Assembly (NCBI RefSeq): GCF_001418575.1
Contig: NZ_LIQR01000047.1
Span: forward strand, 1-64,000
Direction: 5' to 3'
DNA from: Peterkaempfera griseoplana
GTDB taxonomy: Bacteria; Actinomycetota; Actinomycetes; Streptomycetales; Streptomycetaceae
DNA: 64,000 bases
In this document: positions 4,520 to 25,925 of the stretch, piece after piece
Layout: every line of letters starts with the position of its first letter
Numbering within the stretch: position 1 is the first letter of the stretch
Notes under the pieces: generated by a model
Databases searched by the model: none
Seen by the model: the letters and a program-made list of their open reading frames with translations, nothing else
Told to the model about the DNA's origin: nothing
Made by a program: the position numbers and the translations under genes

Positions 4520-5836
4520 TCAGCGGTGGCACTCCAGAGCGGACAGGTCGACGGCGTCGGCCATGGCCTGCATGCCCTTGTCGTTGGGGTGGAGGTGGTC
4601 GCCGCCGTCGAAGAACGGCAGTATCTCCTGGTGGTCGTACGGATTGCGGGTGAGCGCGTCGAAGTCCGTCACGGCGTCGAACTCGCCGCTGTTCCTGATC
4701 CAGTCGTTGACGCCCTGGCGTACGGCTTCGCCGGCGGTGTCGTACTCCGACCAGCCCTTGTACGGCATGACGGTCGCGCCGACGACGCACTTGCCCGCCG
4801 CGTGCGCCCGGTCGATGATCTGCCGGTAGCCGGCGACCAGGTCGTCCACCGTGACGCCGGTGTGGGCCTTGAGGTCGTTGATGCCCTCGAGCAGGAACAC
4901 CGTGCCGACCCCGGGCTGGGAGAGCACATCGCGCTGGAGTCTGTTCAGGGCGGCCTGCCCGTTGCCGTCCGCGAGGACCTTGTTGCCCGAGATCCCCTCG
5001 TTCGCCACACCCTTCACCGTGACACCGGATGCGGCCTGGAGCCGCCGGGAGAGATAGTCGGGCCAGCGGCGGTTCTGGTCCGTGGTCGATGCCCATCCGT
5101 CGGTGATGGAGTCGCCGAGTGCCACCACCGAGCCCACCGCCGTGGAGGTGTCCACGCTCACGGCGTCCAGCCAGTACCAGGAGCCCATCGGATCCGTCCA
5201 GTTGACCGCGCCCTCCTCGGCGGCGTGGTCGCCCGCGGCAGCGTAGGAGGTCTGCATGGCCATGCCGTGGCCGGTCGTCGGTCCCTGGGCTCCCGTCACA
5301 TACAGGCTGACGACGAGATTGCTCTGGGCGGCGAGCGTCCCGGGCAGGGGGTCGCTGAGCACGGTCGCACCGGCCGGAACGGTGACCGACGGCTGCCCGC
5401 CGAACGACAGCCGGCGGTTGGTGCCGTGGACCAGCTCCGCGCCTTGCTGCTGCAGCCCGGCGTAGGCGCTGGCGAAGGTCACCGGGTGGTCCCCGAAGGC
5501 ATTGGTCAGGCGGATGCGCATGTCGGTGCCGCCGACGCTGGTGCGGACGATCAGCCGGTAGCTGCGGTCGGCGGGTCCGGCGCCCTGCCTGTCGGCGCTG
5601 GCCCCCCAGGTGACCACGGAGTGCCGTCCCCGACCTGCCGCGTCCGCCGCCGCCTCTGTCCCGATCTGCTGCTGCGCCTGCGCTGTCGGTGCGGCGGACT
5701 GCCGTGCCTGCGCCGCCGACGGGGCGGTCAGCGGGAGGCAGAGGGCCGTGACCAGCGCGGAGACGGCACCCAGCACGCGGCGCCGGGACATGGGCCGTAC
5801 GCGCCGTTCGCGGGGGTACACCGTGCGGGCGCTCAT
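4520..5836 (-). CDS. secreted SGNH/GDSL-family hydrolase
   Basis: A 438-residue secreted esterase of the SGNH superfamily. An RRRV-containing signal peptide (about residues 14-45) leads to a beta-rich N-terminal domain and then the hydrolase domain. The four blocks are visible: GDSIT (nucleophile Ser), GISGN, LEGINDL (the G-x-N-D block) and DHLHPND with the catalytic Asp and His. Related secreted enzymes remove acetyl groups from plant polysaccharides, which fits the location but is inference. The ATG overlaps the stop of the GH95 gene by four bases (ATGA) and is preceded by GAGGAG, so translation is probably coupled. Confidence 0.88.
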   Translation of the reverse strand: MSARTVYPRERRVRPMSRRRVLGAVSALVTALCLPLTAPSAAQARQSAAPTAQAQQQIGTEAAADAAGRGRHSVVTWGASADRQGAGPADRSYRLIVRTSVGGTDMRIRLTNAFGDHPVTFASAYAGLQQQGAELVHGTNRRLSFGGQPSVTVPAGATVLSDPLPGTLAAQSNLVVSLYVTGAQGPTTGHGMAMQTSYAAAGDHAAEEGAVNWTDPMGSWYWLDAVSVDTSTAVGSVVALGDSITDGWASTTDQNRRWPDYLSRRLQAASGVTVKGVANEGISGNKVLADGNGQAALNRLQRDVLSQPGVGTVFLLEGINDLKAHTGVTVDDLVAGYRQIIDRAHAAGKCVVGATVMPYKGWSEYDTAGEAVRQGVNDWIRNSGEFDAVTDFDALTRNPYDHQEILPFFDGGDHLHPNDKGMQAMADAVDLSALECHR

Positions 5837-8280
5837 CCGAAGCTCCTCAACGTGACGGACTCACCGGGCTGGAGGCTGATCTGCTGCGAGGCTCCGCCGG
5901 CGACGACGGTCGTGGTGCGGCCGCCCACGCTCGTCAGCGTCGCCCGGGTGACCTTGCCGTTCTTCCAGCTGAGGGCGGCGACGAAGCCGCCGCGGACGCC
6001 CACCCCGGAGACCGAGCCGGAGGCCGCCCAGGCGGTGGGCAGCGCGGGCAGCAGCTCGACGTGGCCCGGCCGCGAGTAGACCAGCATCTCGATGACCGCG
6101 GACGGGGTGCCAAAGTTCGCGTCGATCTGGAAGATGCCACGGCCCTGCTCGACCTGGTAGATGTCGAAAAGGTTCATCGCACTGCCGTTGCTGCCGTCCA
6201 CCGAGGGCTTCAAGTTGTGCACGACGAGCTGGTAGGCCTTCTCCGCGTCCTTCAGTCGTGCCCAGCACAGGCTGCGCCAGGCGTTGGCCCAGCCGAAGCT
6301 GTCCATGCCGCGCGCGGTGAGGAGGGCCGTCGCGCCGTCGAGGATGTCCTTGGGGGTGGAGGCGTCAGGACGGATCCGGTCGCCGGGGAAGAGGCCGAAC
6401 AGCGGGGAGAGGTGCCGGTGAGTGGTCTCACCGAGGTTGTCCGGGGACATCCACTCCTCCAGCCAGCCGGTCGTGGGGCTGACCACGGGCAGGTACAGAC
6501 GTTCACGCAGACCGTCGACGGTCCTGCTGTGGTCGGCGTCCCTGCCGAGCACCCGGGTCGCGGTCCGGTAGTTGCCGAAGAGGCTCCACACCAGTTCCTG
6601 GGCGTAGGTGATGCCCTTGGCGTCGAGCGGTCCCTGCTCGGGTGACCAGTCGCTGTCGGCGATCAGCACCTCGCGCGGGGCGCCGGAGGCGTCGGTGACG
6701 GTGGTCGTGATGAGGCGGGCCTCCCAGAACTGCACGGCGCCCTTGATGAGGGGGTAGACCTTCTCGAGGTAGGCGCGGTCCTGGGTGTACTCGTAGTGCT
6801 CGAACAGGTTGTGGCAGAGCCAGGCGTTGCCGGCCGGATGCCACCACCAGCCGCCTCCGCCGTAGGGGTTGGTGGAGATGGCCACGGTCCAGCCGGCGAT
6901 TCTGCCGCTGGAGTTGCGGTATCTGTTGGTGGGGCTGTTGAACAGCCGCCGGGTGGCGTCCGTCCAGGACGGGAGCTGCGCGAGGCAGTAGTCCGCGAAG
7001 GCGTCGAAGCACTCGGACAGGCCCGCCCGGTCGGCCATCCAGTAGTTCATCTGGATGTTGATGTCGGTGTGGTAGTCGCCCATCCAGTCCGGGTCGTTGC
7101 CGTCCAGCCAGGGGCCCTGGAGGCCCATCGGCAGGCTGCCCCGCGATCCGGAGATCATCAGGTAGCGGCCGAACTGCAGGTAGGCGGCCTCGAGCTCCGG
7201 GTCGGGGACGTCGTCCCGGTAGCGTGCCTGCACCCTTTCCCAGGTGTCCAGTTCGCGCTGTGCGGCGGAGGACGTGCCGAGGTCGAGTTCCAGCTGTGCG
7301 AACAGCGGGCGGAAGTCGGCCACATGGGTGTGCAGCAGGGTGCTCGCGGAGTGGCCGGCGGCGTTGCGGACCTTGGTGACGGCGAGGTGCTGCGGATCCA
7401 CGGACGGGCTGCGGAAGCCGGTGGCCGGGTCGGGCGCGTAGTCGGTGCCGCCGCTGACGACGACGGTGAGGTCTCTGCAGCCGCTGAAGGAGATCGACCC
7501 GCCGTCGACGGTGACCTTTCCGGTGCTGCTGGAGGCGGTGACGGCGGCGCCGTACTTCAGACCGTTGGCGAAGGAGCCGCCGAACGACGCACAGCGCCCC
7601 GCGCTGACGGTGGTGGACTCGCCGTGGGTACCGGCGAGGGAGACGGTGCCGGTGTAGGCGCCACCGCCCTGCTGGGTGAAGTGGAGGACGATGACGTCAT
7701 CGGGCCGGCTGGCGAAGATCTGCCGCCGGTAGGTGACGCCGGAGATGTCGTACGAGGCGCTGACCAGGCCCTGGGCCAGGTCGAGGGAGCGCCGGTAGTT
7801 GTTGACGGAGCCCAGGTCGTGGTCGGGGATGTCGACGGTGAGCTCGGCAAGCAGGGTCAGGGAGCCGAAGTCGTCGCGCCCGTAGGGGAACTGGCCGTCG
7901 CTCTGCAGCGTGTCGTTGGGACCTCCGGTCCACAGGGTGGCGTCGGTGATGGTCAGGAGTTCACTGGCGGGGTCGTTGCCCGTGAGTGCCCCGAGGCGTC
8001 CGTTGCCGACCGGAAGCCCCTGCTCGATCATCGAGCCGGAGGAGCCGGGAGCCTGCCACCACAGCAGGTTCTTCGCAGCGTCGGCCGCGGTGAGCATGGG
8101 CGACTCGGTGGGGCGCAGCGGCGCCGCCGAGGCGGTGAAGGCGGGCAGACCACCGAGGGCGGTGGCCGCGCCGACCGCGGCGGCGAGCGTGAGGAAGCCT
8201 CTGCGGCCTGGTCGGTTGTCGCGCGATTCGGTGTCCTGGATGTCCACGGGGTGCACTCCCTGTCCGGGGGAACGGCTCAT
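5833..8280 (-). CDS. secreted GH95 glycosidase (alpha-L-fucosidase/alpha-L-galactosidase family)
   Basis: An 815-residue glycoside hydrolase family 95 enzyme. A twin-arginine leader (GRRGFLTLAAAVGAA, residues 26-50) predicts Tat export. The N-terminal GH95 beta-domain begins LLWWQAPGSSG...GLPVGNGRLGAL. The alpha/alpha barrel holds DINIQMNYW, the Asn-x-Asn region that activates water in this inverting family, and near the C-terminus QIDANFG. Family members cleave terminal alpha-L-fucose or alpha-L-galactose; which one cannot be told from this sequence. It precedes the esterase with overlapping stop and start codons and follows GH27 across a hairpin. Confidence 0.9.
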   Translation of the reverse strand: MSRSPGQGVHPVDIQDTESRDNRPGRRGFLTLAAAVGAATALGGLPAFTASAAPLRPTESPMLTAADAAKNLLWWQAPGSSGSMIEQGLPVGNGRLGALTGNDPASELLTITDATLWTGGPNDTLQSDGQFPYGRDDFGSLTLLAELTVDIPDHDLGSVNNYRRSLDLAQGLVSASYDISGVTYRRQIFASRPDDVIVLHFTQQGGGAYTGTVSLAGTHGESTTVSAGRCASFGGSFANGLKYGAAVTASSSTGKVTVDGGSISFSGCRDLTVVVSGGTDYAPDPATGFRSPSVDPQHLAVTKVRNAAGHSASTLLHTHVADFRPLFAQLELDLGTSSAAQRELDTWERVQARYRDDVPDPELEAAYLQFGRYLMISGSRGSLPMGLQGPWLDGNDPDWMGDYHTDINIQMNYWMADRAGLSECFDAFADYCLAQLPSWTDATRRLFNSPTNRYRNSSGRIAGWTVAISTNPYGGGGWWWHPAGNAWLCHNLFEHYEYTQDRAYLEKVYPLIKGAVQFWEARLITTTVTDASGAPREVLIADSDWSPEQGPLDAKGITYAQELVWSLFGNYRTATRVLGRDADHSRTVDGLRERLYLPVVSPTTGWLEEWMSPDNLGETTHRHLSPLFGLFPGDRIRPDASTPKDILDGATALLTARGMDSFGWANAWRSLCWARLKDAEKAYQLVVHNLKPSVDGSNGSAMNLFDIYQVEQGRGIFQIDANFGTPSAVIEMLVYSRPGHVELLPALPTAWAASGSVSGVGVRGGFVAALSWKNGKVTRATLTSVGGRTTTVVAGGASQQISLQPGESVTLRSFG

Positions 8281-8368
8281 GCGGGACCGGCGGGTGAGGA
8301 CCGCCGGGCTTTTCGTGGGGTACTGGGCGATGGTGGGGCGGGGGACGCCGGGAGGTGGGTCCCCCGCC

Positions 8369-8400: not shown

Positions 8401-8407
8401 GGGTCCG

Positions 8408-10273
8408 TCAGTTGGTCTGCGGGACGCTGATCCGGTCGATGTCGGGTGCGTATCCGCTGCCGCTGTCGAAGGTGATGGTGTTGGAGCCGGCCTTCAGGGC
8501 GAGCTGGACGCTGACGGTGTCGACCGTGCCCCAGTCACCGGTGGAGGGGAACGGCAGGCTGGTGCCGTTGCCGGTGTTGGAGAACACGGTCACCGAACGG
8601 GGGTCGCCGCTGACGTAGGCGACCTTGACGGTGTAGATCCCGTCCTTCTGCACCGTGATGTGGTTGAACTGGAGCTTGCCGCCGAGGTAGAGGTTGCCGA
8701 CCTTGTTGCCACCGGAGCAGGCGTCGCATCCGGCGACGGAGGCGTTGCCGCTGAGCGTGTTGGCCGCGGACTCCGCCTCGTAGCTCGTGGTCGCCAGGGT
8801 CGTGCCGCCGGGCCTGACGGTGAACAGCCGGGAGCCGTGGGCGGGCAGCGCCTCGGTGATCCTGTTCTTGTACGTCCCGAGGTTCTGCTTGTTCCACAGG
8901 TCGCGTACGGAGGCGTTGCCGGCGAATCCGAAGGACGCCCAGTCGGCGCTGACGGAGGCCGGCGAGTCGCCGAGGTTGAACAGCGCGACGGTGTAGCTGC
9001 CGTCGGCGTTCCTGGTGCCCCAGACCTGCTGGTCGCCCATCGGGGTGACCGGCCGGGCCACGGGCGAGTCGCTCTGGTCGACTGCGATGACTTCCTGGTT
9101 GGTCAGCAGGGAGACGCCGTAGCCGTCGAGCCGGGTGAGGTCGTCACCGGTGTACAGGGGCGACTTGTTGATCGCCCACAGGGTCATGTAGCTCTGCCGC
9201 TCGGCCTTGGTGAGGCCGTCCATCGCCCCGTTGCCGACGTCGAGGGAGTCAAGGTCGTTCCAGCCGCCGGGGCCTGCCTTGTGGCTCCATGCCGGGGCGT
9301 CGTTCCATCGGTCGTTGACCGAGTTCTCCCAGGTGACGAGGGTGTTGCAGTAGCACTCCACGTCGGTCTCGATGCGCCAGCCGTTGGAGTACTGCTTCCA
9401 GTCGGCGGCGTGGCCGATGTCGAGGGACCAGGAGATCTCCAGGTGGATGGGGCGCCCGGTGGCGGCGATGGCCTGGTGCCAGGCGGCGACGTCGGCCACG
9501 TTGTCGTAGTTGTCCCCCGACTTGAACGAGCCGGGGCCGACACCGTCCAGCTTGAGGAAGTCGTAGCCCCAGTCGGCGAACATCTGCGCCTGTGAGTCGA
9601 CGTACTTCTGTGCGCAGGGGTTGTCGAAGTCCAGCTTGTAGGAGCTGTCCCAGCCGTTGGTGGTGCGCAGGTCCGGGTAGACGATGTCGGCGGTGGTGCA
9701 GCCGGGGGCGTTCCAGACCGGCACCTTGCCGTCGCCGTAGGCCTCCTTCTCCAGGCCCACGGGCAGGTAGATGCCGGCCTTGAGGCCCTTGGCGTGGATG
9801 TGGTCGGCGACCGGCTTCATGCCGTCGGGGAAGCGCAGCGGGTCGGGCGCCTGGCGGCCGTACTGGTCGTACTCGGGCTTCCAGGTGTTGTCGCGCCACC
9901 AGCCGGCGTCGATGTTGACGTAGTCGTAGCCGTATTTCTTGAGCTTGGTGGCGAGGGCGTCCGTCTGCTTCAGGACGTTCGCCTGCGTGAGGTAGCTGTA
10001 GTCGCCGTCGGGGTTCAGGCCCGGGTACTTGGAGGACTGCATGCTCCAGCTGGACCAGCCCATGTAGGGCTTGGCTGCTGTGCCGGAGGTGGCGTCCGCG
10101 GTGGGTGCGGCGGCGGTCGCAGCCGTCTTTCCGGCGGCTTCCGCCTGGGTGGCGGCGGCAGGGACGGCCGTTGCCAGAGCGGCCGTCACGGCCAGGACCA
10201 GCGTGGCTCGTGCTGTCCGGGACAGGGACCCGGCGGGGACTGCGGGCAGGGCTGGGTACGAGGATGACCGCAT
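8408..10273 (-). CDS. secreted GH27 glycosidase with C-terminal CBM35-like domain
   Basis: A 621-residue secreted retaining glycosidase of family 27 (alpha-galactosidase / beta-L-arabinopyranosidase). A signal peptide (about 1-47) leads to a TIM barrel starting KPYMGWSSW (68-76). The nucleophile is Asp243 in FLKLDG and the likely acid/base is Asp304 in RIETD; GGWNDLD follows. A beta-sandwich (GRLF-type) lies after about 390. Residues from about 500 (YEAESA, CSGGNKVG) form a CBM35/CBM6-like carbohydrate-binding domain. The usual Asp-Asp pair that holds galactose reads Asp122-Ala123 (NIDAGW), so specificity may differ from plain alpha-galactosidase. It is flanked by hairpins on both sides. Confidence 0.9.
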   Translation of the reverse strand: MRSSSYPALPAVPAGSLSRTARATLVLAVTAALATAVPAAATQAEAAGKTAATAAAPTADATSGTAAKPYMGWSSWSMQSSKYPGLNPDGDYSYLTQANVLKQTDALATKLKKYGYDYVNIDAGWWRDNTWKPEYDQYGRQAPDPLRFPDGMKPVADHIHAKGLKAGIYLPVGLEKEAYGDGKVPVWNAPGCTTADIVYPDLRTTNGWDSSYKLDFDNPCAQKYVDSQAQMFADWGYDFLKLDGVGPGSFKSGDNYDNVADVAAWHQAIAATGRPIHLEISWSLDIGHAADWKQYSNGWRIETDVECYCNTLVTWENSVNDRWNDAPAWSHKAGPGGWNDLDSLDVGNGAMDGLTKAERQSYMTLWAINKSPLYTGDDLTRLDGYGVSLLTNQEVIAVDQSDSPVARPVTPMGDQQVWGTRNADGSYTVALFNLGDSPASVSADWASFGFAGNASVRDLWNKQNLGTYKNRITEALPAHGSRLFTVRPGGTTLATTSYEAESAANTLSGNASVAGCDACSGGNKVGNLYLGGKLQFNHITVQKDGIYTVKVAYVSGDPRSVTVFSNTGNGTSLPFPSTGDWGTVDTVSVQLALKAGSNTITFDSGSGYAPDIDRISVPQTN

Positions 10274-10330
10274 GGGGTCGGACCTCCTGTTGTGGGGTCA
10301 CGGGGATCGTGCGGTGGAACCGTGCAGGGG

Positions 10331-10388: not shown

Positions 10389-11312
10389 TCAGCCCTTGCC
10401 CGAGCCGATGGTGAGCCCGCTGATGAACTGGCGCTGCAGCGCGAAGTACACCAGCAGCGTGGGGATCGCGGTCATGAGGGCACCGGCCGCGATGAGGTTG
10501 GGGTTGGTGAAGTACTGGCCCTGGAGGTTGGCCAGCGCGGAGGTGACCGGACGTTTGTCACCCGTCTCGATCAGCGCGAGGGACCAGAAGAAGTCGTTGT
10601 AGATCCAGATGGACTCCAGCGTCGCGAGCGCTGCGAACGCCGGGCGGCACAGCGGCAGCACGATCTGGAGGAACTGGCGCCACGCCGGGGCACCGTCGAC
10701 AACGGCGGCTTCGAAGATCTCTTTCGGGATCGTCCTCATGTAGTTGCTGAGCACGAACGTGCAGAAGCCGCACTGGTAGGCGATGTGGATGAAGATGATG
10801 CCCCAGAGCGAGTTGTAGACGAGCAGGGAGTCGCTCATCCACGACGGCAGCGGGATCAGCAGGTACAGCCGGAACAGCGGCGTGATCAGCACCTGCGCGG
10901 GGAGCAGGTTCCCCGCGGTGAAGAGCATCAGCAGCACGACGTTCCAGCGGAAGTCGAACCGCGAGACGAAGAAGGCCACGGCCGCCGCGAACAGCAGGGT
11001 GCCGAGCACCGCCGGAATGGTGATGAGCACCGAGTTCCAGAAGAAGTGCGGCATCCCGGACTGACTCCAGGCGTCCGAGAAGTTCTGCAGACCGATGCTG
11101 TGCGGCCAGGAGAGATACCCGTGCTGTGTGGTGTCCGCGTAGGGCCGCAGGGAGGTGTAGACGGCCCACAGCAGCGGGACGAGCCACAGCAGCGCGATCC
11201 CGCCCAGCATGATGTGCCGTCCGGTCTGCCGCCTGGGCCCGCGGGGGGCGCTTGCGGTACGTGTCAGCGCGGGCCGTGACCGGTGGGCCGGCGGCGTGGC
11301 GGTCACGGTCAC
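10389..11312 (-). CDS. carbohydrate ABC transporter permease (MalG-like, CUT1)
   Basis: A 307-residue inner-membrane permease with six predicted membrane helices. The cytoplasmic EAA loop (EAAVVDGAPAWRQFLQIVLP) couples it to the ATPase, and the end IGSGKG is typical of MalG-type subunits. Its GTG start overlaps the TGA of the preceding permease (GTGA), indicating translational coupling. No ATPase gene is present; CUT1 systems in streptomycetes commonly share MsiK encoded elsewhere. Confidence 0.92.
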   Translation of the reverse strand: MTVTATPPAHRSRPALTRTASAPRGPRRQTGRHIMLGGIALLWLVPLLWAVYTSLRPYADTTQHGYLSWPHSIGLQNFSDAWSQSGMPHFFWNSVLITIPAVLGTLLFAAAVAFFVSRFDFRWNVVLLMLFTAGNLLPAQVLITPLFRLYLLIPLPSWMSDSLLVYNSLWGIIFIHIAYQCGFCTFVLSNYMRTIPKEIFEAAVVDGAPAWRQFLQIVLPLCRPAFAALATLESIWIYNDFFWSLALIETGDKRPVTSALANLQGQYFTNPNLIAAGALMTAIPTLLVYFALQRQFISGLTIGSGKG

Positions 11313-12238
11313 TGGTCCTCCTTGCGGAAGGTCTGGACGAGGAAGGCCCCGATCGCGGCCAGCGAGACGAGGAGCAGGAGGACTGCGAGCGCGGACCCGT
11401 ACCCGATGTGGCTGGACTCACCGATGATGTTGTCGGTGATGAGCAGGGACAGGAGTTCCATGCCGGGCTTGCTGCCGGTGCCGCCGCCCAGCACATAGAC
11501 GATGTCGAAGGCGCGGAGGGACTCCATGACGGTGACGACCAGGACGATGATGTTGACCGGCTTCAGCGCCGGCAGCACCACTCTCATGAAGGTCTGGCGC
11601 CCGTTGGCGCCGTCGAGTGCGGCCGCCTCCTTCAGGGCGGGGTCGACGCCCTTGAGCCCCGCCAGGTAGAGGATCATGATGTAGCCGGTGTGCCGCCAGC
11701 CGGAGGCGACCAGTACGGCCCACAGGTTGAGGTGGGGATCGCCGAGCCAGTCGATGTGACGGCCGAGCGCGCCGTCCAGAAGTCCGGTGTCGGGGTTGTA
11801 GATGATCTCCCAGATGAATCCGACGACCGCCAGGGAGAGCACCATCGGCATGAAGATCGCGGTCTGGTAGACCCGGCTGAAACGGATCTTGCGGTCCAGC
11901 TGGTAGGCGAGAAAGACGCCGAACGGGGTGGGCAGGAGCGCCGTGAACAGCAGCCAGACGACGTTGTGCCGGACAGCCGGCCAGAACGGCGGGTAGTTGG
12001 TGAGGATCTGGTGGTAGTTGTCCAGCCCGGCCCAGTGGATGTCGGACAGAGTGAGGCCGTCCCAGCCGGTGAAGGACAGGCCGATGGAGGACAGCGCCGG
12101 CAGCCACACGAAGACCAGCAGGGCCAGCAGCGGGATTCCGACGGCAACCGTCAGGAAGAGGCGGTCACCAGGACCGAGCCGGCGAGGACGGGGGTGTGCG
12201 CGGGACGACGACCGGCGCGAGGGTCGCACGGAGGACAT
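11309..12238 (-). CDS. carbohydrate ABC transporter permease (MalF-like, CUT1)
   Basis: A permease of about 309 residues with six helices and the EAA loop EAAALDGANGRQTFMRVVLP. It pairs with the MalG-like subunit to form the membrane channel for an imported oligosaccharide. The start is ATG 12238, 20 bp after the binding-protein stop, with GGAGAGG as ribosome-binding site; the frame is open upstream but that part overlaps the binding-protein gene. Confidence 0.92.
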   Translation of the reverse strand: MSSVRPSRRSSSRAHPRPRRLGPGDRLFLTVAVGIPLLALLVFVWLPALSSIGLSFTGWDGLTLSDIHWAGLDNYHQILTNYPPFWPAVRHNVVWLLFTALLPTPFGVFLAYQLDRKIRFSRVYQTAIFMPMVLSLAVVGFIWEIIYNPDTGLLDGALGRHIDWLGDPHLNLWAVLVASGWRHTGYIMILYLAGLKGVDPALKEAAALDGANGRQTFMRVVLPALKPVNIIVLVVTVMESLRAFDIVYVLGGGTGSKPGMELLSLLITDNIIGESSHIGYGSALAVLLLLVSLAAIGAFLVQTFRKEDQ

Positions 12239-12258
12239 GGTGAGCCTCTCCGGTGGGG

Positions 12259-13572
12259 TCAGGCCGTGAAGAAGCGCGAGCGCTGCGACTCGATCTTCCT
12301 CAGCAGGGCCGAGCCGTCGTCGGGGTGGTTGAGCCACTCGGTGAAGCCCGGCTCGACCACGGTGGAGATGAATCCCGGGTCGCTGTCGCGGTCACCGAAC
12401 TGGGTGATGTGCTTGGCACCGGCGATGAGTTCGGCGGACTTCTTCTGCAGGGCGTTGTACGCGCTCGTGTCGGCACCTGAGTTGACGGCGACGTTGCTGG
12501 GGTCGACGCCCATGTACAGGCCCTCGGCCTTCGCGCCGCCGAGGAACTCCAGGAGCTTGGTGGCGCCGTCGTGGTTCTTCGGTCTGCGGCTGAGCATGAA
12601 GCCGTCGGTGGGCGCCTCGACCGTGTCCTGGCCGTACGTCGGGTCGATCTCCGGGAAGGGGAAGAAGTCGATGTCGGCGCGCAGGGACTCGTCGGTGACC
12701 TGCTGGCCGAGGAAGAGGCCGATGACCGCCATGCCGGACTTCTTGTCGAGCAGGGACTGCGCCGCGTCCTGCCAGGAGCGGCCGCCGCCGCCCGTCTGGT
12801 AGTAGGGGGCGAGTTCCCGCCACAGGTCGATGGTCCGGACGACGCGCTTGTCCGTCCAGGCGGCCTGGCCCCGCATCAGGGACATGTGGAAGTCGTAACC
12901 GTTGGCGCGGAGGTTGAGGTAGTCGAAGGCGCCGAGGATGCTCCAGCTGTCGCCCCCGCCGTAGCCGGAGGCAATCGGGGAGAGTCCGTCCTTCTGCATC
13001 TGCCTGGCGAGCGCGGTGAACTGGCTCCAGTTCGCGGGGATCTGGTAGCCGTGCTGCTGGAAGACGCTCTTGCGGTAGAAGACGGCCCACGGGTAGTTGT
13101 AGAGCGGGACGAAGTAGTACTTCCCGTCCTCGCCTCTGGACAGCTGCCTGGTCGCGTCGCTGAAGCCGGCGCCTATCGTGTCCCAGACCTCGTCCAGGGG
13201 ACTGGCCAGGCCCTTCTTGGCGAAGTACTGCATGCGGTAGCCGGCGAACCAGGTGAAGACGTCGTCCGGGGTGCCCTGCAGATAGGTCGAGATGCTCTTC
13301 TGGAAGGTGTCGTGGTCGACGGTGTTCGTCCTGACCGTGAGCTTGCTGTCCTTCTGGAAGGCGTCCGTCACCGCGGCGTAGGCCTTCTTGGGTGTGGCGT
13401 CCGCACCGTTCGAACCGAAGGTCACCGTCTTGGGGTCGGATCCGGCTCCGCCGCCGCAGGCGGTGAGGGCCGGCACCGCCAGGGCTGCCGCCCCGGCGCC
13501 GAGCAGTCCCTGGAGCACCGTTCTGCGGTTGGGCCCCACAGGGGTCCGGAAGCTGCGGCTCTGCAGCGTCAT
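12259..13572 (-). CDS. ABC transporter sugar-binding lipoprotein (CUT1)
   Basis: A 437-residue extracellular solute-binding protein. The leader has twin arginines (NRRTVLQGLLGAGAAAL) and ends in the lipobox LTACGGG, predicting a Tat-exported lipoprotein. The mature part is a family-1 binding protein: PDDVFTWFAGYRMQYFAKKG, PLYNYPWAVFYRKSVFQQHG, FPFPEID. It is the first transport gene, 8 bp downstream of the ROK regulator gene. Position beside alpha-galactosidases suggests galactosyl-oligosaccharides, which is inference. Confidence 0.92.
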   Translation of the reverse strand: MTLQSRSFRTPVGPNRRTVLQGLLGAGAAALAVPALTACGGGAGSDPKTVTFGSNGADATPKKAYAAVTDAFQKDSKLTVRTNTVDHDTFQKSISTYLQGTPDDVFTWFAGYRMQYFAKKGLASPLDEVWDTIGAGFSDATRQLSRGEDGKYYFVPLYNYPWAVFYRKSVFQQHGYQIPANWSQFTALARQMQKDGLSPIASGYGGGDSWSILGAFDYLNLRANGYDFHMSLMRGQAAWTDKRVVRTIDLWRELAPYYQTGGGGRSWQDAAQSLLDKKSGMAVIGLFLGQQVTDESLRADIDFFPFPEIDPTYGQDTVEAPTDGFMLSRRPKNHDGATKLLEFLGGAKAEGLYMGVDPSNVAVNSGADTSAYNALQKKSAELIAGAKHITQFGDRDSDPGFISTVVEPGFTEWLNHPDDGSALLRKIESQRSRFFTA

Positions 13573-14772: not shown

Positions 14773-14803
14773 TGATTCTTTTCCTCTGTCAATGAAAGAA
14801 TCA
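14773..14803. promoter_or_regulatory. inverted repeat, likely ROK operator
   Basis: TGATTCTTT (14773-14781) and AAAGAATCA (14795-14803) are exact inverted repeats with a 13-base spacer, an AT-rich island in GC-rich DNA. It lies 16 bp upstream of the ROK start and between the ROK and GH36 genes, where an autoregulatory operator is expected. Confidence 0.65.
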
Positions 14804-18275: not shown

Positions 18276-21269
18276 GTGTGGCTGCGTAAACGAAGGCATT
18301 CCGCCCTGCTGCTGGCGGGGACGGCGGTGACAGCTCTTCTCGCGACAGGTCTCGTCTCTGCGGACCTCGCGGCGGCCGACTCTGCGGCGTCCGTCTACGC
18401 AGCACCCGACGGCTCCGGCAGTCACTGCTCGTCCGCGGCGCCCTGCTCGATCACCACGGCTCAGCAGGCTGTGCGTCACGCTCGAGCCGGGCACAAGGGC
18501 GCCGTGCAGGTGATCCTGGGCGACGGTACCTATCAGCTGGCGGCGCCCCTTGACTTCGACGCGGCAGACTCGGGCAGCCCCGGGCAGCCGATCGTGTGGA
18601 CGGCGGCGCCCGGCGCCCACCCGATACTCTCCGGAGCAACCCGCATCCGCGGCTGGACCACGTCCTCCCCGGCAGGCGTCTGGTCGGCGAACGTTCCGGC
18701 CACCAGCGCGAGCCGTCAGCTCTACGTCGACGGCACGGAGGCGCCCGTCGCGCAGGCCACGCCGTCCCAACTGCACTTCGCCGGGGGCTGGAAGGGCTCG
18801 GCCACGGGATACGACCTCAGGGACGACCCGGCCGGGCTCGCCTTCTTCGCGGCGATGACGCCGGCCCAGTTGCAGCAAGTCGAGTTCGACTACCCGGGCG
18901 GGAACGGGCAGTGGACCGACTCCAAGTGCCGCGTGCGGTCGTTGTCCGGCACTTCGCTGACCATGAACGAGCCGTGCTGGAAGAACGTCACCGCCCGCTC
19001 CGACTACTCCCAGGCCAGCGGCACGCTGCCCGCGATGGGTAGCTCGCAGATGCCGGCCTCGATCCAGAACGCGAGGAGCCTGCTGCATCCCGGCCAGTGG
19101 TTCCTCGACCAGTCGGCCCACACCCTGTACCTCGCCCCGCTGAACGGGGCCGAGCCGGACAGTCTCGACGTCGAACTGCCCCGCCTGGAGACGCTCCTCC
19201 AGGGCGCGGGCAGCTTGGCCCGTCCCGTCCACGATCTGACGTTCTCCGGGCTCACCTTCTCCTACGCCACGTGGAACGCACCCTCCGAACCCGCGGGCTT
19301 CGCCGATGTGCAGAGCAACCTGCACATGACGGGGGCGAACAACCAGGGCATGTGCTCGTATTCGAACCCGGCCGGCACCTGCCCGTGGGGCCTGCTGACC
19401 GAGCCCCACGCCAACGTCTCCTTCACTGCCGCCAACCACATCACGCTGACCGGCAACCGGTTCGCGGAACTCGGCGGCGCGGGCCTGAGCATCGCCTACG
19501 GCTCCTCGCACAACCTCGTCCAGGGCAACGAGTTCACCGACATCGCCTCGACCTCGATCCTGCTCGGTTGCACCGCCGACCCCACGCCGGTCAACCCCGA
19601 CCCGGTCCACTTCCCGGACTACCTGACCAAGAACCCCGACACACCTGAGACGATCAAGGACAACTGCACCCCGGATCCCTCTGCTGTGGCCGGTGACAGC
19701 ATCGGAGAGAACGAGATCGCCACCGACAACGTGATCTCGGACAACGTCATCCACCGAGTGGGCAGCGACTACCCCTCGGCCAGCGGCATCACGCTGCTTT
19801 ACACCCGGCACACACAGGTCACCCGGAACGAGCTCTATGACCTGCCCTACACCGGCATCACCGCCGGTGTCATCCAGGGGCACGTCGACTCGGCGGACCA
19901 TCCGTCGAACTCGCTCAACATCAACGCCGACAACACCATCAGCTACAACCTCATCCACGACTACCTCACCGTGCTCGGCGACGGGGGTGGTGTGTACATG
20001 GAGGGGCACCAGGCCCCCTACCAGTACAAGGCCGACGGCAAGACGATCGACTTCGACGCCACGATGGCGCACGGCCTGCAGGTGATCGGCAACGTCACCT
20101 ACAACCAGGGGCCCGGCTTCGCGTCCTTCTACGACGACGCCGGTTCCGAATGGATCCACTACGTCGGCAACGTGCAGTTCCACAACAACGGCGCCAACGC
20201 CCAGGGAGGCTGCGCGGCGACCGGGCACTTCCTCGTCGAGGGCAACTACTTCTCCGCGTCCGCCGGTCAGTACATCTGCGCCGACGCGGTCGACAGCCAT
20301 GTCGGCAGCAACACCTCCATCCCGGCCTCCCCGGGACCGAACGACATCCAGCTGACGGCACTGCAGAGCGCCGGCCCCGACACGTCGGGGCGAGGCTTCG
20401 CCGACGCGACCGCCATCGAGACCGACTACGTCTCGCCGCCGCAGGCGACGTTCTCCAACGGCACCACGACCATGCGGGTGCTGATCGGTGGCGCGGGTTT
20501 CGCGCCGGGGACCCCGGTCTACTTCTCCGGCCATGCCTCCCCCAAGGTGCAGGTGCTCTCATCCGGATTCCTGATCGCGACGATCCCGCCCGGCTCGGAC
20601 ACGTCGCAGGTGTCGGTCGGCGGTCTCGTCGCCGCGCCCACGATCTCGGCTCCGGCGTCAGGCACGACCGGCGTGGCCGGCACGTTCACCGTTCGCGGGT
20701 CCGGGGCCACGGGTGACACGGTCACCGTGACCGAAGGCGGCGCCCCCCTGTGCCGGGTGACGGTCACGGGCTCCGCGTGGTCGTGCACCGTGACGGAGGC
20801 CGACGGCCAGCACACACTCGTCGCCGTGCAGTCGAACTCGCGTGGCGTCTCCTCGCCACCGGCCACCACCGTCTTCGTGGTCGGCAAGGCTCCCGCCGCC
20901 GTCCGGCTCAACGACACGGACCCCGACCTCCAGTACTCCGGATTCAGCCACCAGAGCGGCCGCGGGTTCGGCGACTACCAGGACGACATCCACTACGCGT
21001 CGGACAACGGCTCGACGGTCACCTACACGTTCGTCGGTACCGGTATCAAGGTGTACGGCGAACAGAGCACCGACCAAGGCCATTTCTCTGCGGTGCTGGA
21101 CGCGGGCACGCCGGTCGGCGTCGACACCGTACCCAGTGACGGCCAGCGTCATTCGAATGTCGCCGTATGGTCCAAGACCGGCCTGCCTCCCGGTCTGCAC
21201 ACACTCGTACTGACCAAGGTCGACGGCACCTACATGACCTTCGACGGACTCGAGGTCGACAACGGCTGA
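18276..21269 (+). CDS. secreted right-handed beta-helix protein with Ig-like and CBM-like C-terminus
   Basis: A 997-residue secreted protein with a GTG start after GAAGGAGA. A signal peptide (1-34) precedes a domain opening VYAAPDGSGSHC and VILGDGTYQLAAPLDFD. It continues through GAHPILSGATRIRGW and RQLYVDGTEAPVAQA into a pectin-lyase-type beta-helix (NHITLTGNRFAELGGAGLS, TISYNLIHDYLTVLGDGGGVY). This order resembles GH141 and related beta-helix glycosidases, but I cannot fix the family. Residues about 785-870 are a bacterial Ig-like domain and about 880-997 a beta-sandwich, likely carbohydrate-binding. A role on plant polysaccharide is inferred from the locus. Confidence 0.8.
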   Translation: MWLRKRRHSALLLAGTAVTALLATGLVSADLAAADSAASVYAAPDGSGSHCSSAAPCSITTAQQAVRHARAGHKGAVQVILGDGTYQLAAPLDFDAADSGSPGQPIVWTAAPGAHPILSGATRIRGWTTSSPAGVWSANVPATSASRQLYVDGTEAPVAQATPSQLHFAGGWKGSATGYDLRDDPAGLAFFAAMTPAQLQQVEFDYPGGNGQWTDSKCRVRSLSGTSLTMNEPCWKNVTARSDYSQASGTLPAMGSSQMPASIQNARSLLHPGQWFLDQSAHTLYLAPLNGAEPDSLDVELPRLETLLQGAGSLARPVHDLTFSGLTFSYATWNAPSEPAGFADVQSNLHMTGANNQGMCSYSNPAGTCPWGLLTEPHANVSFTAANHITLTGNRFAELGGAGLSIAYGSSHNLVQGNEFTDIASTSILLGCTADPTPVNPDPVHFPDYLTKNPDTPETIKDNCTPDPSAVAGDSIGENEIATDNVISDNVIHRVGSDYPSASGITLLYTRHTQVTRNELYDLPYTGITAGVIQGHVDSADHPSNSLNINADNTISYNLIHDYLTVLGDGGGVYMEGHQAPYQYKADGKTIDFDATMAHGLQVIGNVTYNQGPGFASFYDDAGSEWIHYVGNVQFHNNGANAQGGCAATGHFLVEGNYFSASAGQYICADAVDSHVGSNTSIPASPGPNDIQLTALQSAGPDTSGRGFADATAIETDYVSPPQATFSNGTTTMRVLIGGAGFAPGTPVYFSGHASPKVQVLSSGFLIATIPPGSDTSQVSVGGLVAAPTISAPASGTTGVAGTFTVRGSGATGDTVTVTEGGAPLCRVTVTGSAWSCTVTEADGQHTLVAVQSNSRGVSSPPATTVFVVGKAPAAVRLNDTDPDLQYSGFSHQSGRGFGDYQDDIHYASDNGSTVTYTFVGTGIKVYGEQSTDQGHFSAVLDAGTPVGVDTVPSDGQRHSNVAVWSKTGLPPGLHTLVLTKVDGTYMTFDGLEVDNG

Positions 21270-21276
21270 CCCGGAA

Positions 21277-21915: not shown

Positions 21916-22139
21916 CCGGCCATTCACAGAAACTGACAATTACTCAGCATACGGCGCCGTAAAGGCGCAGCCGTTCACTCCCCGGATGTGCGCGGAAGTC
22001 GGCACGTCTCGCCGGCCCCGATTGGGCTGAGGGCACGTCAACTACCCATGTTTCGTGTGTGTTTCGTGAGCATTGAGGGTTTGTTCGAGATCTTGAGTGT
22101 GTGATCGAATCCGCCCATCACACATCGTAAGGAGGAAGA

Positions 22140-25100
22140 GTGTTCTATTCCACGGCTCGAACAACGAGCTGGGCGGCCCTGTGCACCACGGCTGCCGTAG
22201 TCGTCACTCTCCTGACCCCCGCCACAGCGGGGGCCATCGTGTCGACCGGGCGGTCGGAGGGCCCGTCTGCCCGTTCCGGTGGTCCGGCGAAGACGGTAAC
22301 CCTCGTCACCGGCGACAAGGTCATCGTCACGCCTGGCGCGGAGGGCGGGCCCGACACGCTGAGCGTCGAGCGCCGTCCCGGTGCTGCCGGTTCGGTGCGC
22401 ATCGTCAACGAGGGAGGCGACACCTACGTCTACCCGGACGAAACGCTCGCCTACCTGGCAGCGGACCGTCTCGACAAGCGCCTCTTCAACGTCACCGGCC
22501 TCATAGCGCAGGGCTACGACGACGCGCACGCCCCTAAGCTCCCCCTGATCCTCACCGGCCTGGGCACCGCGGCCCAGCGCCGTGGCGGCGCGCCGCTGCC
22601 GGGGGCGGGAACCGGACGCGCACTGCCGTCCGTCGGCGGTGAGGCCGTCGCGGCCGACCGTTCGAAGGCGGCGGACGTCTGGACCGCGCTCACCGCGGGC
22701 AGCACCGCGCCGTCCGCGCCGGACGCGGGCGGGTCCCGGAAGGCCGCCGCCGAGCCGTCGTTCACCGGCGGCATAGCCAAGATCTGGCTGGACGGCAAGA
22801 CGAAGGCGGCACTCGCCGACACCACCGCCCAGATAGGCGCCCCCCAGGTCTGGGAGTCGGGCGACACCGGCGCCGGAGTCAAGGTTGCGGTGCTCGACAC
22901 CGGCGCCGACACGGCACATCCGGATCTCAAGGACCGCATCGTCGACTCCCGCAGTTTCGTCCCCGACCAGGACGTGCAGGACCGCCAGGGCCACGGTACC
23001 CACGTCGCCTCCACCGTCGCCGGGACCGGCGCCGCGTCGGGTGGCAAGGAGAAGGGCGTGGCCCCCGGGGCCGACCTGGTGATCGGCAAGGTGCTCGGCG
23101 ACCAGGGCGAGGGTCAGGAGTCCTGGGTCATCAGCGGCATGGAGTGGGCCGCACGCACGGAGCACGCCCGGGTCATCAACATGAGCCTCGGCAACGACGC
23201 GCCCAGTGACGGAAACGACCCGTTGAGCCAGAGCGTCAACGCTCTGAGCGGCGAGACGGGGGCGCTGTTCGTCGTCGCCGCCGGCAACACCGGCCTGAAA
23301 GGCCCGTCCTACCTCATCGGCTCCCCCGCCGCCGCCGACGCCGCACTGACCGTGGGGGCGGTCGACTCCTCAGACCGGCTGGCGCCCTTCTCCAGCGTCG
23401 GCCCGCGGGTCGGCGACGAGGGCGTCAAGCCCGACATCACGGCCCCGGGCGTGGGCGTCCTCGCGGCCCGGTCGCAGTACATCAGCCAGGGCGAGGGCTA
23501 CTACCTCCCGATGGACGGCACCTCGATGGCGTCCCCGCACGTCGCCGGTGCCGCGGTCCTGCTCGCGCAGAAGCATCCCGACTGGACAGCAAGCCAGTTG
23601 AAGGACGCCCTGATGAGCACCAGCAAGCCCACGCCGTACCTCACCGCGTACCAGGGCGGCGCCGGGCGCGTCGACGCGGCGGCCGCCTTCCGCTCCAAGG
23701 TCACCGCGACCGGCTCGGTCTTCCGCTTCCTGCCGTGGCCGAGCGAGACCAGCGGCTCCGTCAAGCAGGAGATCACGTACACCAACTCCGGGGACGAGCC
23801 GGTGACGCTGCAGCTCGCGGTGGAGCCGGACGCGTCGGGCGACCGGACGCTCTCGCTGTCCGCCGGCCAGGTCACCGTGCCTGCCCACGGCAGCACCGGT
23901 GTGGAGGTCGGCACAAATCTGTCCAGCCTCGCCGGGGGCAACCACACCGCCCAGGTCGTCGCCCGCGACGCCCACGGCGCGGTCGTCGCCCACACGGTCG
24001 CCGGTGTGGGCCTGGAGCCCGAGAGGTACAACCTCGACATCACCATGAAGGACCGCTCGGGCGAGCCGATGGGCGGCTGGATCCACCTCAAGGGCGCCCT
24101 CAGCCGGTCCACGACCGCGTACGAGATCCCCGAGAGCGGCGAACTCACGCTGCGTCTGCCGCCGGACACCTACTCAGTGGTGTCCTACGCGGACGTCCAG
24201 GGCACCCACGGACCGGACTCCCGGGGCATCGCGCTGCTGAGCGCTCCCGAGGTCGACCTGACCGCGGACCGGAAGATCGCCCTGGACGCCTCCAAGGCAC
24301 ACCAGGTGACGGCCGACACACCGAAGGCCACCACGCTGGTCGACACCCGGCTGGACTACATCCGGTCCTTCACCTCAGCGGACCCCGGCCCGGCCGACTA
24401 CACCGCCGTCCGCGAAAACATCGTGGTCGGGAAGAACTACGACAGCGTCTGGGCCCAGCCGACCGCCAAGGTGCGCCACGGCGGTTTCGTGTTCACCACC
24501 CGCCTGCGGGCGCAGGAGACGCCGCTCGAGCTCTCCTACGACGGCGAGCGGATCGACGACGCACTGGCGCAGCAGGGAAGCGCCGTCCTCCCCGACGGCA
24601 AGGCGAACCTGGACGCGGTGTTCGCCGGGACCGGTTCACCCCAGGACTTCGCGAAGGCCTCCGTCCGCGGCAAGGTCGCAGTGGTGCGCCACAGCGACGA
24701 GGTCGAGCCCCTGGCCCAGGCGCAGGCCGCGAAGGAGGCGGGCGCGGCGCTGCTGCTCGTGGTGAACGACGGAGTGGGACGGCTGTCCACTTGGTACGGG
24801 CAGCCGGACTACTCCACCATCGTCGACGTGCCCGTGGTGTCGGTCAACAAGGACGAAGGTGAGGCGCTGATCGAGCGGATCACCACCAAGGGCAACGGCC
24901 ACGGCACGACGCGGCTGAAGGTGACGGCCCACCCGTCGCCCTCCTACCTCTACGACCTGGTCAAGTACCACAAGGGCGCCGTGCCCGAGGACGTGGCCTA
25001 CCACGCGGACAAGGAGCGGCTGGCCCGCATCGACCTCGACTTCGCCCAGCCGAAGGGCAGGACAGCCCAGGAACGGCGCACGGACTTCCCGGCGTACGAG

Positions 25101-25925
25101 TGGAGCACGGGGTACTCGTTCGCTCTGGAGCCGGTGGCCCCCGGAGGGCGAACGGACTGGGTGACGGCGGGGGACGACGTCCGCTGGCAGCAGAGCGCAT
25201 CGGTCGACGGCTGGGTGGGCTCGGTCAACGAGCCCACGTCCTACCAGCCGGACAGTACCCAACAGGAGCGGTGGCTCGGCCCGGTGCTGCGGCCGCGCAT
25301 GTCCGACAGCGCCTCCGAGATGCGTGACGAGACCGGGCTCTCGCTCTACGTCCCGGGCTGGAGCGACTCCGGCGCTGCGCACTCGGGCTCCTCGGCGAGC
25401 GAGAAAATGACCGCGCACACGTCGCTGCTCCAGGGCGGAACCACCCTGGTGACGACCGACAGTGCCTACGTCAGCGCCTTCGACCTGCCGGCCGAGTCGC
25501 TGCCCTACCGGCTCGTCGTCGACGCGGCCGGCGACCAGGTGGTGAGCCCGTACTCCTCGAAGACCCACACGGAGTGGGACTTCGTTTCGGGCAAGGCGCA
25601 GGTGGGGACCGTGCCGCTGGTGCAACTCGACTACGGCACCGAACTCGACGCCGAAGGCAGGTCGCGCCGCGCGGGGGAGATCTCCGTCACCCCCTCGGTG
25701 CTCGGCACCTCCGAGCCCGACCCGGTGTCCTCGGTCCGGCTTGAGGTCTCCTACGACGACGGGGCGTCCTGGCAGCAATCGGACCTGACCCGACGTCAGG
25801 GCACCTGGAGCGCCACTCTGCGCGCCCCCTCCTCTGCCGAGTTCGTGTCGCTGCGCACCAGCGCCACGGCACGCACCGGGGGTTCGGTCTCGCAGACCGT
25901 CATCCGGGCCTTCGGCCTGAAGTGA
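22140..25925 (+). CDS. secreted subtilisin-like S8 serine peptidase
   Basis: A 1261-residue secreted protease. GTG 22140 follows GTAAGGAGGAAGA, a very strong ribosome-binding site. A signal peptide (about 1-32) and a long propeptide precede the S8 domain. The triad is Asp253 (VAVLDTGAD), His285 (GHGTHVAST) and Ser462 (DGTSMASPHVAG). After the catalytic domain come beta-sandwich regions and a protease-associated insert (GKVAVVRHSDEVEPLAQAQA near 840). This is the large actinobacterial subtilase architecture, anchored by no visible sorting signal. It is probably a general scavenging protease. A strong hairpin follows the gene. Confidence 0.92.
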   Translation: MFYSTARTTSWAALCTTAAVVVTLLTPATAGAIVSTGRSEGPSARSGGPAKTVTLVTGDKVIVTPGAEGGPDTLSVERRPGAAGSVRIVNEGGDTYVYPDETLAYLAADRLDKRLFNVTGLIAQGYDDAHAPKLPLILTGLGTAAQRRGGAPLPGAGTGRALPSVGGEAVAADRSKAADVWTALTAGSTAPSAPDAGGSRKAAAEPSFTGGIAKIWLDGKTKAALADTTAQIGAPQVWESGDTGAGVKVAVLDTGADTAHPDLKDRIVDSRSFVPDQDVQDRQGHGTHVASTVAGTGAASGGKEKGVAPGADLVIGKVLGDQGEGQESWVISGMEWAARTEHARVINMSLGNDAPSDGNDPLSQSVNALSGETGALFVVAAGNTGLKGPSYLIGSPAAADAALTVGAVDSSDRLAPFSSVGPRVGDEGVKPDITAPGVGVLAARSQYISQGEGYYLPMDGTSMASPHVAGAAVLLAQKHPDWTASQLKDALMSTSKPTPYLTAYQGGAGRVDAAAAFRSKVTATGSVFRFLPWPSETSGSVKQEITYTNSGDEPVTLQLAVEPDASGDRTLSLSAGQVTVPAHGSTGVEVGTNLSSLAGGNHTAQVVARDAHGAVVAHTVAGVGLEPERYNLDITMKDRSGEPMGGWIHLKGALSRSTTAYEIPESGELTLRLPPDTYSVVSYADVQGTHGPDSRGIALLSAPEVDLTADRKIALDASKAHQVTADTPKATTLVDTRLDYIRSFTSADPGPADYTAVRENIVVGKNYDSVWAQPTAKVRHGGFVFTTRLRAQETPLELSYDGERIDDALAQQGSAVLPDGKANLDAVFAGTGSPQDFAKASVRGKVAVVRHSDEVEPLAQAQAAKEAGAALLLVVNDGVGRLSTWYGQPDYSTIVDVPVVSVNKDEGEALIERITTKGNGHGTTRLKVTAHPSPSYLYDLVKYHKGAVPEDVAYHADKERLARIDLDFAQPKGRTAQERRTDFPAYEWSTGYSFALEPVAPGGRTDWVTAGDDVRWQQSASVDGWVGSVNEPTSYQPDSTQQERWLGPVLRPRMSDSASEMRDETGLSLYVPGWSDSGAAHSGSSASEKMTAHTSLLQGGTTLVTTDSAYVSAFDLPAESLPYRLVVDAAGDQVVSPYSSKTHTEWDFVSGKAQVGTVPLVQLDYGTELDAEGRSRRAGEISVTPSVLGTSEPDPVSSVRLEVSYDDGASWQQSDLTRRQGTWSATLRAPSSAEFVSLRTSATARTGGSVSQTVIRAFGLK

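What the first reader, a model, noticed from the sequence alone, without database searches (positions are those of the whole stretch)
4520..25925. Polysaccharide locus with two-compartment debranching logic
Secreted GH27, GH95, SGNH esterase and a beta-helix enzyme are combined with a CUT1 importer, a ROK repressor and a cytoplasmic GH36. The set fits a substrate with alpha-D-galactosyl plus L-fucosyl, L-galactosyl or L-arabinopyranosyl side chains and acetyl groups, such as decorated plant hemicellulose or pectin. The specific pairing of GH95 with GH27 and GH36 under one ROK regulator may define an uncharacterised pathway.
Basis: partly seen in the sequence, partly recalled or inferred. Interest (0 to 1): 0.5.

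Follow-up and report, generated by a model that had tools for sequence, protein, structure and literature searches.

The report
Galactose-and-fucose glycan harvesting gene cluster
A soil actinobacterium carries a self-contained gene set that probably cuts galactose- and fucose-like sugars off an unknown glycan outside the cell, imports the products and finishes them inside; both outside enzymes carry unusual active-site residues, so what they really cut is open.

Summary
The genes are real, but the finding's edges are wrong. The conserved locus is window 4520-17109: SGNH esterase, GH95, GH27-CBM35, two CUT1 permeases, an AcbH-like binding protein, ROK, and divergent GH36. The beta-helix enzyme (GH141-like) and an S8 protease (18276-25925) lie outside it. 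Of 80 named loci found by GH95 alone, GH27 was detected in 78 (the other two end at a contig edge), ROK in 74, a close esterase in 65, but the importer in only 14 and GH36 in 19. In reverse, 16 of 17 GH27 orthologues adjoin this GH95. A conserved operator overlaps the ROK promoter and occurs once, exactly, in the genome. Both secreted enzymes depart from characterised relatives at the sugar site: GH27 has Ala/Ser where alpha-galactosidases have Asp; GH95 has Asp where fucosidases use Asn421, and a pocket His is lost. A sister locus type keeps ROK and GH27 (GH36 in 14 of 16) but in 9 of 16 has a cytoplasmic, canonical GH95 and another importer. Best reading: GH27 acts first, outside; GH95 second, outside or inside. 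Substrate unproven.

The parts
4520..5836 (-). Secreted SGNH/GDSL esterase with N-terminal beta-sandwich-like domain
   Evidence: Pfam PF13472; nearest solved structures 7tog and relatives, acetyl esterases; close orthologue in 65 of 80 loci, a 40-44% relative in 10, none detected in 5
5833..8280 (-). Secreted (RR-type signal) GH95 of a divergent clade
   Evidence: PF22124 379 bits; FucOB 378 bits; Asp at FucOB N385 / AfcA N421 in 80 of 80
8408..10273 (-). Secreted GH27 with C-terminal CBM35-like domain; key residue Ala123
   Evidence: PF16499, PF17801, CBM6/35; Foldseek ranks 1-9 GH27 beta-L-arabinopyranosidases; Ala/Ser in 77 of 77 readable orthologues, one of 78 not covered
10389..11312 (-). 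CUT1 permease 2 (MalG-like)
   Evidence: PF00528; NCBIfam weak matches to GlcU/MalG
11309..12337 (-). CUT1 permease 1 (MalF-like); true start may lie near 12238
   Evidence: PF00528; translation
12259..13572 (-). Lipoprotein solute-binding protein, AcbH-like
   Evidence: PF01547; AcbH 3oo6 398 bits, best other protein 71 bits
13581..14756 (-). ROK-family regulator with winged HTH
   Evidence: PF00480 180 bits, HTH_24; detected in 74 of 80 loci, one of them (L009) a remnant
14776..14800 (-). Inverted-repeat operator TTCTTT-N13-AAAGAA overlapping the -35 box (TTGACA); -10-like TAGGTT at 14769-14764 and ATG at 14756, probably a leaderless transcript
   Evidence: conserved upstream of ROK; single exact site in own genome
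14938..17109 (+). Cytoplasmic GH36 alpha-galactosidase, divergent from the operon
   Evidence: PF02065 389 bits; AgaB 4fnq 427 bits; orthologue detected in 19 of 80 loci
18276..21269 (+). Secreted beta-helix GH141-like protein, NOT part of the conserved locus
   Evidence: BT_1002 (5mqp) E 4.7e-30; not linked in relatives
22140..25925 (+). Secreted S8 subtilase with PA domain, NOT part of the locus
   Evidence: PF00082 213 bits

Best explanation
A locally repressed glycan-utilisation locus for a glycan rich in D-galactose that also carries a GH95-sensitive sugar (L-fucose or L-galactose type). Shown by sequence: a ROK operon with its own conserved operator; secreted GH27, GH95 and SGNH esterase; an AcbH-type CUT1 importer; a cytoplasmic GH36. 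Inferred: a galactose-derived inducer lifts ROK; the esterase deacetylates; GH27 makes the first cut outside, removing alpha-D-galactosyl (or beta-L-arabinopyranosyl) units or releasing galactosyl fragments; GH95 removes the L-sugar, outside in this locus and inside in the sister type; the importer brings in galactose or galactosides; GH36 hydrolyses remaining alpha-galactosides. The GH27 and GH95 belong to clades in which I found no characterised member and whose -1 subsites differ from the characterised enzymes I could check.
For: Gene families. Conservation of ROK-GH27-GH95-esterase in 80 loci chosen only by GH95; reciprocal 16 of 17, the exception (G602) lying beside a sister locus that supplies a GH95. 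Operator near-consensus (at least 22 of 29 positions) in 67 of 74 homologous upstream regions plus the window; one exact site in the genome, the four 2-mismatch sites being below the control count of 8; a site in 16 of 16 relatives with zero control hits. In two Actinacidiphila genomes (L005, L009) the ROK gene at the locus is a remnant but operator and promoter remain, and a ROK paralogue with the same operator (one mismatch) lies elsewhere. SBP = AcbH-like; AcbH's exclusive preference for beta-D-galactopyranose is taken from the title of Licht 2011, seen in reference lists. GH36 catalytic motifs intact in 19 of 19 orthologues. Sister loci: ROK in 16 of 16, GH36 in 14 of 16, canonical GH95 without signal sequence in 9 of 16.
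Against: No activity, binding or expression data. GH27's closest folds are beta-L-arabinopyranosidases, which does not need D-galactose. The GH95 clade has lost residues needed by known fucosidases, so its sugar may not be L-fucose at all. The importer was detected in only 14 and GH36 in only 19 of 80 loci (some flanks are cut by contig ends), so the two-compartment scheme is the fuller, rarer form. Five of 16 sister loci show neither GH95 nor importer in the stretch fetched. Six Micromonospora rows do not share the operator. Asp at the AfcA Asn421 position is not unique: 5 of 6 members of another divergent GH95 group have it too. No galactose-binding residue of AcbH was checked in the SBP.
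Confidence: 0.6

Rival explanations
1. The GH27 is a beta-L-arabinopyranosidase and the locus trims arabinogalactan-type glycans carrying L-Arap and L-Fuc caps.
For: Profile search ranks Abp beta-L-arabinopyranosidase first, 196 bits against 187 for the next different enzyme; Foldseek ranks 1-9 are Abp and SaArap27A; loss of Asp at the C6 position is what distinguishes arabinopyranosidases (PMC4598101, passages); the CBM35-like domain resembles that of a beta-1,3-galactanase, second to 2wz8 in the profile search.
Against: The single-sequence search ranks an alpha-galactosidase (3a5v, 163 bits) just above Abp (159 bits). Known arabinopyranosidases have Ile or Glu at the key position, not Ala/Ser. 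The AcbH-like SBP and the GH36 (NCBIfam arabinopyranosidase model 92 bits against cut-off 1100) point to galactose. No beta-galactanase seen among the locus proteins scanned.
Confidence: 0.2
2. The GH27 clade is a depolymerase (endo-acting or oligosaccharide-releasing alpha-galactanase, working like isomaltodextranase): Ala/Ser leaves room for a 6-substituted galactose, and fucosylated galacto-oligosaccharides are released, as from a fucogalactan (alpha-1,6-galactan with alpha-1,2-L-fucose; structure recalled).
For: In sister loci the GH95 has no signal sequence in 9 of 9 readable cases and is encoded with an importer, so what is imported probably still carries the GH95-sensitive sugar. Isomaltodextranase 5awo aligns over 609 columns. 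Only alpha-acting galactosidases were seen in the locus.
Against: The model was not inspected atom by atom and has low confidence near the acid/base region; 5awo is rank 13, 22% identity, rmsd 13.3 A, and is absent from the sequence hits; simple trimming by an exo-GH27 before import would explain the sister type too. No literature support found.
Confidence: 0.25
3. Xyloglucan or corn-type glucuronoarabinoxylan debranching, as in known GH95 loci.
For: GH95 plus esterase occur in the Xanthomonas xyloglucan locus (PMC8245568, passages), and a GH95 alpha-L-galactosidase with a GH97 alpha-galactosidase in the B. ovatus xylan locus (PMC4491172, passages).
Against: No GH74, GH35, GH10, GH43 or GH115 and no separate GH31 among the selected ORFs scanned in 244-31806 (only a weak GH31 match inside the GH36 protein). 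The esterase's Pfam matches show no inserted domain of the kind described for CE20, and it lacks the GNSI motif.
Confidence: 0.1

Closest known systems
Actinobacterial CUT1-ROK sugar-utilisation operons with a secreted glycosidase and a cytoplasmic exo-glycosidase (kind recalled, not from a call)
   Same: Lipoprotein receptor, two permeases, ROK, secreted and cytoplasmic glycosidases; no ABC ATPase among the proteins scanned (a shared MsiK-type ATPase is recalled knowledge)
   Different: Secreted GH27/GH95 pair with altered -1 residues; importer detected in only 14 of 80 loci
AcbH (Actinoplanes acarbose cluster) galactose receptor
   Same: SBP 398 bits over residues 49-417
   Different: Here inside a glycosidase operon; binding not tested
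GH27 beta-L-arabinopyranosidases Abp (Geobacillus) and SaArap27A
   Same: Best profile and fold matches; catalytic motifs kept
   Different: Ala/Ser instead of Ile or Glu at the key position; CBM35-like domain
GH95 alpha-1,2-fucosidases AfcA and FucOB
   Same: Family domains, acid Glu, pocket Trp, first His, second Asn and HRH motif kept
   Different: Asn421 to Asp in 80 of 80; His760 position is Tyr in the window, inside a longer loop; base position Asp in 61, Glu in 19 of 80
FjoAcXE-like acetylxylan esterases (7TOG to 7TOK)
   Same: Two-domain layout, alignable over residues 87-433
   Different: GDSI instead of the family's GNSI motif (PMC9105624, passages)

Membership tests
GH27 | Melibiase_2 domain with catalytic Asp pair | tested here: met
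GH27 alpha-galactosidase subtype | Second Asp of the NIDD motif (C6 side) | tested here: not met
   Ala in 72, Ser in 5 of 77 readable orthologues, one of 78 not covered; of three other GH27 genes of the same genome two have DDCW and one DGGW
GH27 beta-L-arabinopyranosidase subtype | Ile or Glu at that position | tested here: not met
GH95 | GH95 catalytic domain over cut-off and acid Glu | tested here: met
   379 bits against 27; Glu in all 76 of 80 rows printed
GH95 alpha-1,2-L-fucosidase subtype | Asn421/Asn423 pair (AfcA numbering) and His760 | tested here: not met
   Asp at 421 in 80 of 80, Asn at 423; His760 position Tyr in the window, not His in the orthologues printed
GH36 alpha-galactosidase, subgroup I | DDGW, KWD nucleophile, SDN acid/base motifs | tested here: met
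   (19 of 19); motif roles recalled
AcbH-type galactose receptor | Near full-length sequence match | tested here: met
AcbH-type galactose receptor | Binds beta-D-galactopyranose | not testable with these tools
   no binding assay; primary paper not held
CUT1 ABC importer | SBP plus two MalFG-like permeases | tested here: met
ROK repressor | ROK domain and winged HTH; conserved inverted repeat over own promoter | tested here: met
ROK repressor | Binds that DNA and represses | not testable with these tools
   needs a gel shift
GH141 (beta-helix protein) | Belongs to this locus in relatives | tested here: not met
FjoAcXE-like esterase family | GNSI motif at catalytic Ser | tested here: not met
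   GDSI here

The most novel reading that the evidence does not exclude
The locus defines a new galactan-harvesting system: a GH27 clade that is a secreted alpha-galactan depolymerase releasing oligosaccharides, paired either with a secreted GH95 that has regained a carboxylate base (Asp for Asn421), or, in sister loci, with a cytoplasmic canonical GH95 and another importer. The GH95 step has thus changed compartment while regulator and GH27 stayed.
Probability: 0.25. Interest if true: 0.65.

Novelty: new variant of a known kind. Interest (0 to 1): 0.45.

Why it matters
A widespread cassette in Streptomyces and relatives (the best 80 of 255 GH95 relatives in one capped scan) holds two glycosidase clades whose specificity cannot be read from the characterised relatives I could check. 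Two natural arrangements of what looks like the same pathway, with GH95 outside or inside, give a clear way to deduce the order of cuts and the imported molecule. If the depolymerase reading holds, it adds an activity to GH27 and a base variant to GH95.

Tried and rejected
Beta-helix enzyme and S8 protease as locus members: rejected. Isomaltodextranase by sequence: not among profile hits at E up to 1, only by fold. Literature on fucogalactan plus these enzymes: 0 papers; a broader search listed no paper with the word fucogalactan in its top 12 of 3,399. Searches for the GH27/GH95/GH36 set in Streptomyces listed nothing that by title or abstract start describes this locus; the library holds open-licence papers only and most listed papers were not opened. 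GH95 model (pLDDT 71.8, low around the active site) was not used for any claim. L192/L193 GH27s (another subtype; the same places read DDFW as L180/L181) sit in a cluster with GH88, a lyase and GH28 domains (L192 scanned). A wider regulon of the operator was sought and not found. Type C GH27s (about 47-54% identity to the sister GH27): six loci fetched (L230-L235); the two whose motif was read (L233, L234) have DDFW, and no match to either GH95 query was detected in the six.
Full report
What is there. The window lies in an 8.24 Mb, 802-contig actinobacterial draft. Pfam assigns GH95, GH27 with a C-terminal CBM6/35-like domain, GH36, an SGNH esterase, two CUT1 permeases, a binding protein and a ROK regulator at 4520-17109. 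All but GH36 run on the minus strand; GH36 diverges from ROK. N-termini fit secretion for GH27, GH95, esterase and binding protein and a cytoplasmic place for GH36 (printed; by eye, no signal-peptide program was run). The beta-helix protein at 18276-21269 is closest to BT_1002 of GH141.

What is conserved. A scan of genome contigs with the GH95 alone gave 255 relatives, of which the best 80 were kept. In these 80, GH27 was detected next to it in 78 (the other two end at a contig edge), ROK in 74 (one of these, L009, is a remnant; of the six without, five are at contig edges and L005 holds a shorter remnant), a close esterase in 65, a distant one in 10, none in 5; SBP and both permeases in 14, GH36 in 19. 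Some flanks are cut by contig ends, so these are lower bounds. The core is thus ROK-GH27-GH95-esterase; importer and GH36 are added in a minority. The reverse test took all 17 GH27 orthologues (541-607 bits) other than the window's own that one search found in 101 family genomes: 16 of 17 have the same GH95 adjacent. One further row of that call, L253, was fetched for another reason and is not counted. The exception, in G602, lies beside a sister locus that has its own GH95.

The edge of the locus. The 10-kb flanks do not reach the GH141-like gene, so I searched 16 carrier genomes with it: 12 have relatives at E up to 1e-20, only two at 57-58% identity over most of the protein. Comparing those positions with the operator positions, none of the 12 has a listed match within 300 kb of the operator on the same contig (three share a contig, at about 329 kb, 553 kb and 1.77 Mb). 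Several of these assemblies are fragmented, so a break could hide a link in some.

Regulation. Upstream of ROK lies TTCTTT-N13-AAAGAA, whose centre holds a TTGACA -35 box; a TAGGTT -10 follows and the ATG comes 7 bases later, so the transcript is probably leaderless (inference). Against a consensus I set from these sequences, 67 of 74 homologous upstream regions and the window match at 22 or more of 29 positions; six Micromonospora rows (15-18 matches) and L009 do not. L009's site was then found by direct search; one search had missed it because the best alignment to its ROK remnant covers only the C-terminal end. In the window's genome there is one exact site; four more with two mismatches are fewer than the eight of the reversed-pattern control. 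Sixteen of 16 relatives carry a site with up to 3 mismatches, 14 one and two two, with no control hits. In the two genomes with two sites, the ROK gene at the main locus is a remnant while the operator stays, and a ROK paralogue (69-71% identity; the L157 copy an open frame of 411 aa) with the same operator at one mismatch lies elsewhere. This looks like a repressor that moved but kept its target (inference).

GH27. Catalytic motifs are kept. At the position that PMC4598101 (passages) names as the specificity residue (Asp in alpha-galactosidases, Ile or Glu in beta-L-arabinopyranosidases, Cys in flexible enzymes) this clade has Ala (72) or Ser (5) in all 77 readable orthologues of 78. Among the other GH27s tabulated, Asp, Glu, Gly, Cys and Trp occur; Ala or Ser occurs in this clade, in its sister clade, in L166 and in one distant protein, L168. 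The profile search ranks Abp first by a small margin (196 against 187 bits), while the single-sequence search put an alpha-galactosidase first (163 against 159 bits). The AlphaFold model (pLDDT 77.5, low at 303-311 and 335-343 near the acid/base region) matches beta-L-arabinopyranosidases at ranks 1-9, an alpha-galactosidase at 12 and isomaltodextranase at 13 over 609 columns with rmsd 13.3 A.

GH95. The nearest solved structure is FucOB. Using pocket residues listed in PMC10063614 (passages), the Trp, first His, second Asn, acid Glu and HRH motif are kept; Asn385 (AfcA Asn421) is Asp in 80 of 80, and the stretch with His693 (AfcA His760) is a longer loop with Tyr at that place in the window. 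In AfcA two Asn act in place of a base (passages); here a carboxylate is available. The Asp766 position is Asp in 61 and Glu in 19 of 80. All seven canonical GH95s printed from the same phylum keep Asn and HPP before the FQ(I/M)DGN motif; but in a second divergent group of six, five also have Asp at the Asn421 position, so this change is not unique to the locus. Thr or His at AfcA 419 is not a reliable L-Fuc/L-Gal marker (PMC8245568, passages), so I draw nothing from the His here.

Importer and GH36. The binding protein matches AcbH at 398 bits, the best other protein at 71. The title of Licht 2011, seen in reference lists, says AcbH prefers beta-D-galactopyranose exclusively; the paper was not held. 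GH36 matches AgaB at 427 bits with catalytic motifs intact. Together they point to galactose.

Sister loci. A related GH27 (59-61% identity to the window's in the two compared; Ala in each of the eleven sister copies whose motif was read) lies with a ROK in 16 of 16 loci examined: 14 of the 16 best hits fetched, plus L190 (a further one of the 16) and L194 (the query's own); the remaining hit, at a contig edge, was not fetched. GH36 is present in 14 of 16, the other two being cut by the fetched stretch; it is a different GH36 (35-38% identity to the window's) except in L194 (70%), and its location in the cell was not checked. Nine of 16 have two permeases only distantly related to the window's (25-29% in the two compared) and a canonical GH95 (66-72% to L194's, L194 itself included in the nine); eight of these nine show a different binding protein, the ninth being cut. 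Two have a more distant GH95; five have neither GH95 nor importer. In all nine the GH95 has starts 15-37 residues before its first conserved motif and no hydrophobic leader by eye; in five of them further in-frame starts lie 100 or more residues upstream, which I judge to run into the preceding gene. I take it as cytoplasmic. The sister binding protein's best solved matches are 5k2x and 5k2y (UspC) at 107-109 bits, which does not settle its ligand. So the GH95 step is outside here and inside there, and the importer differs accordingly. The simplest reading is GH27 first, GH95 second.

What remains open. Which sugar each enzyme cuts, and whether GH27 trims or depolymerises. The fucogalactan idea fits enzyme directions and the sister loci but rests on recalled polysaccharide structure and on no assay.

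Noticed in passing
window 28331-30640: STAND-type regulator: HTH_31, NB-ARC ATPase and TPR repeats in one protein.
   Followed up: no
window 18276-21269: GH141-like secreted beta-helix protein with extra C-terminal domains (weak Pfam matches); 57-58% relatives in two of 16 carrier genomes searched.
   Followed up: partly
window 22140-25925: 1261-aa secreted S8 subtilase with PA domain just beyond the locus; 37-38% relatives lie in three Micromonospora loci (L028, L029, L030) near the same cassette.
   Followed up: no
L005:4501-4754 and L009:4131-4663: ROK gene reduced to a remnant while operator and promoter are retained; ROK paralogue with the same operator (one mismatch) elsewhere.
   Followed up: yes
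L225 with L236 (G602): The two locus types stand next to each other; the window type there lacks its GH95 while the sister type has one.
   Followed up: partly
L192 (and the similar L193): Another GH27 subtype (DDFW) sits with GH88, a polysaccharide lyase, and a protein with GH28 and alpha-L-fucosidase domain matches.
   Followed up: no
L113-L117 and L134: A second divergent GH95-related group in the phylum, 5 of 6 members with Asp at the AfcA Asn421 position.
   Followed up: no
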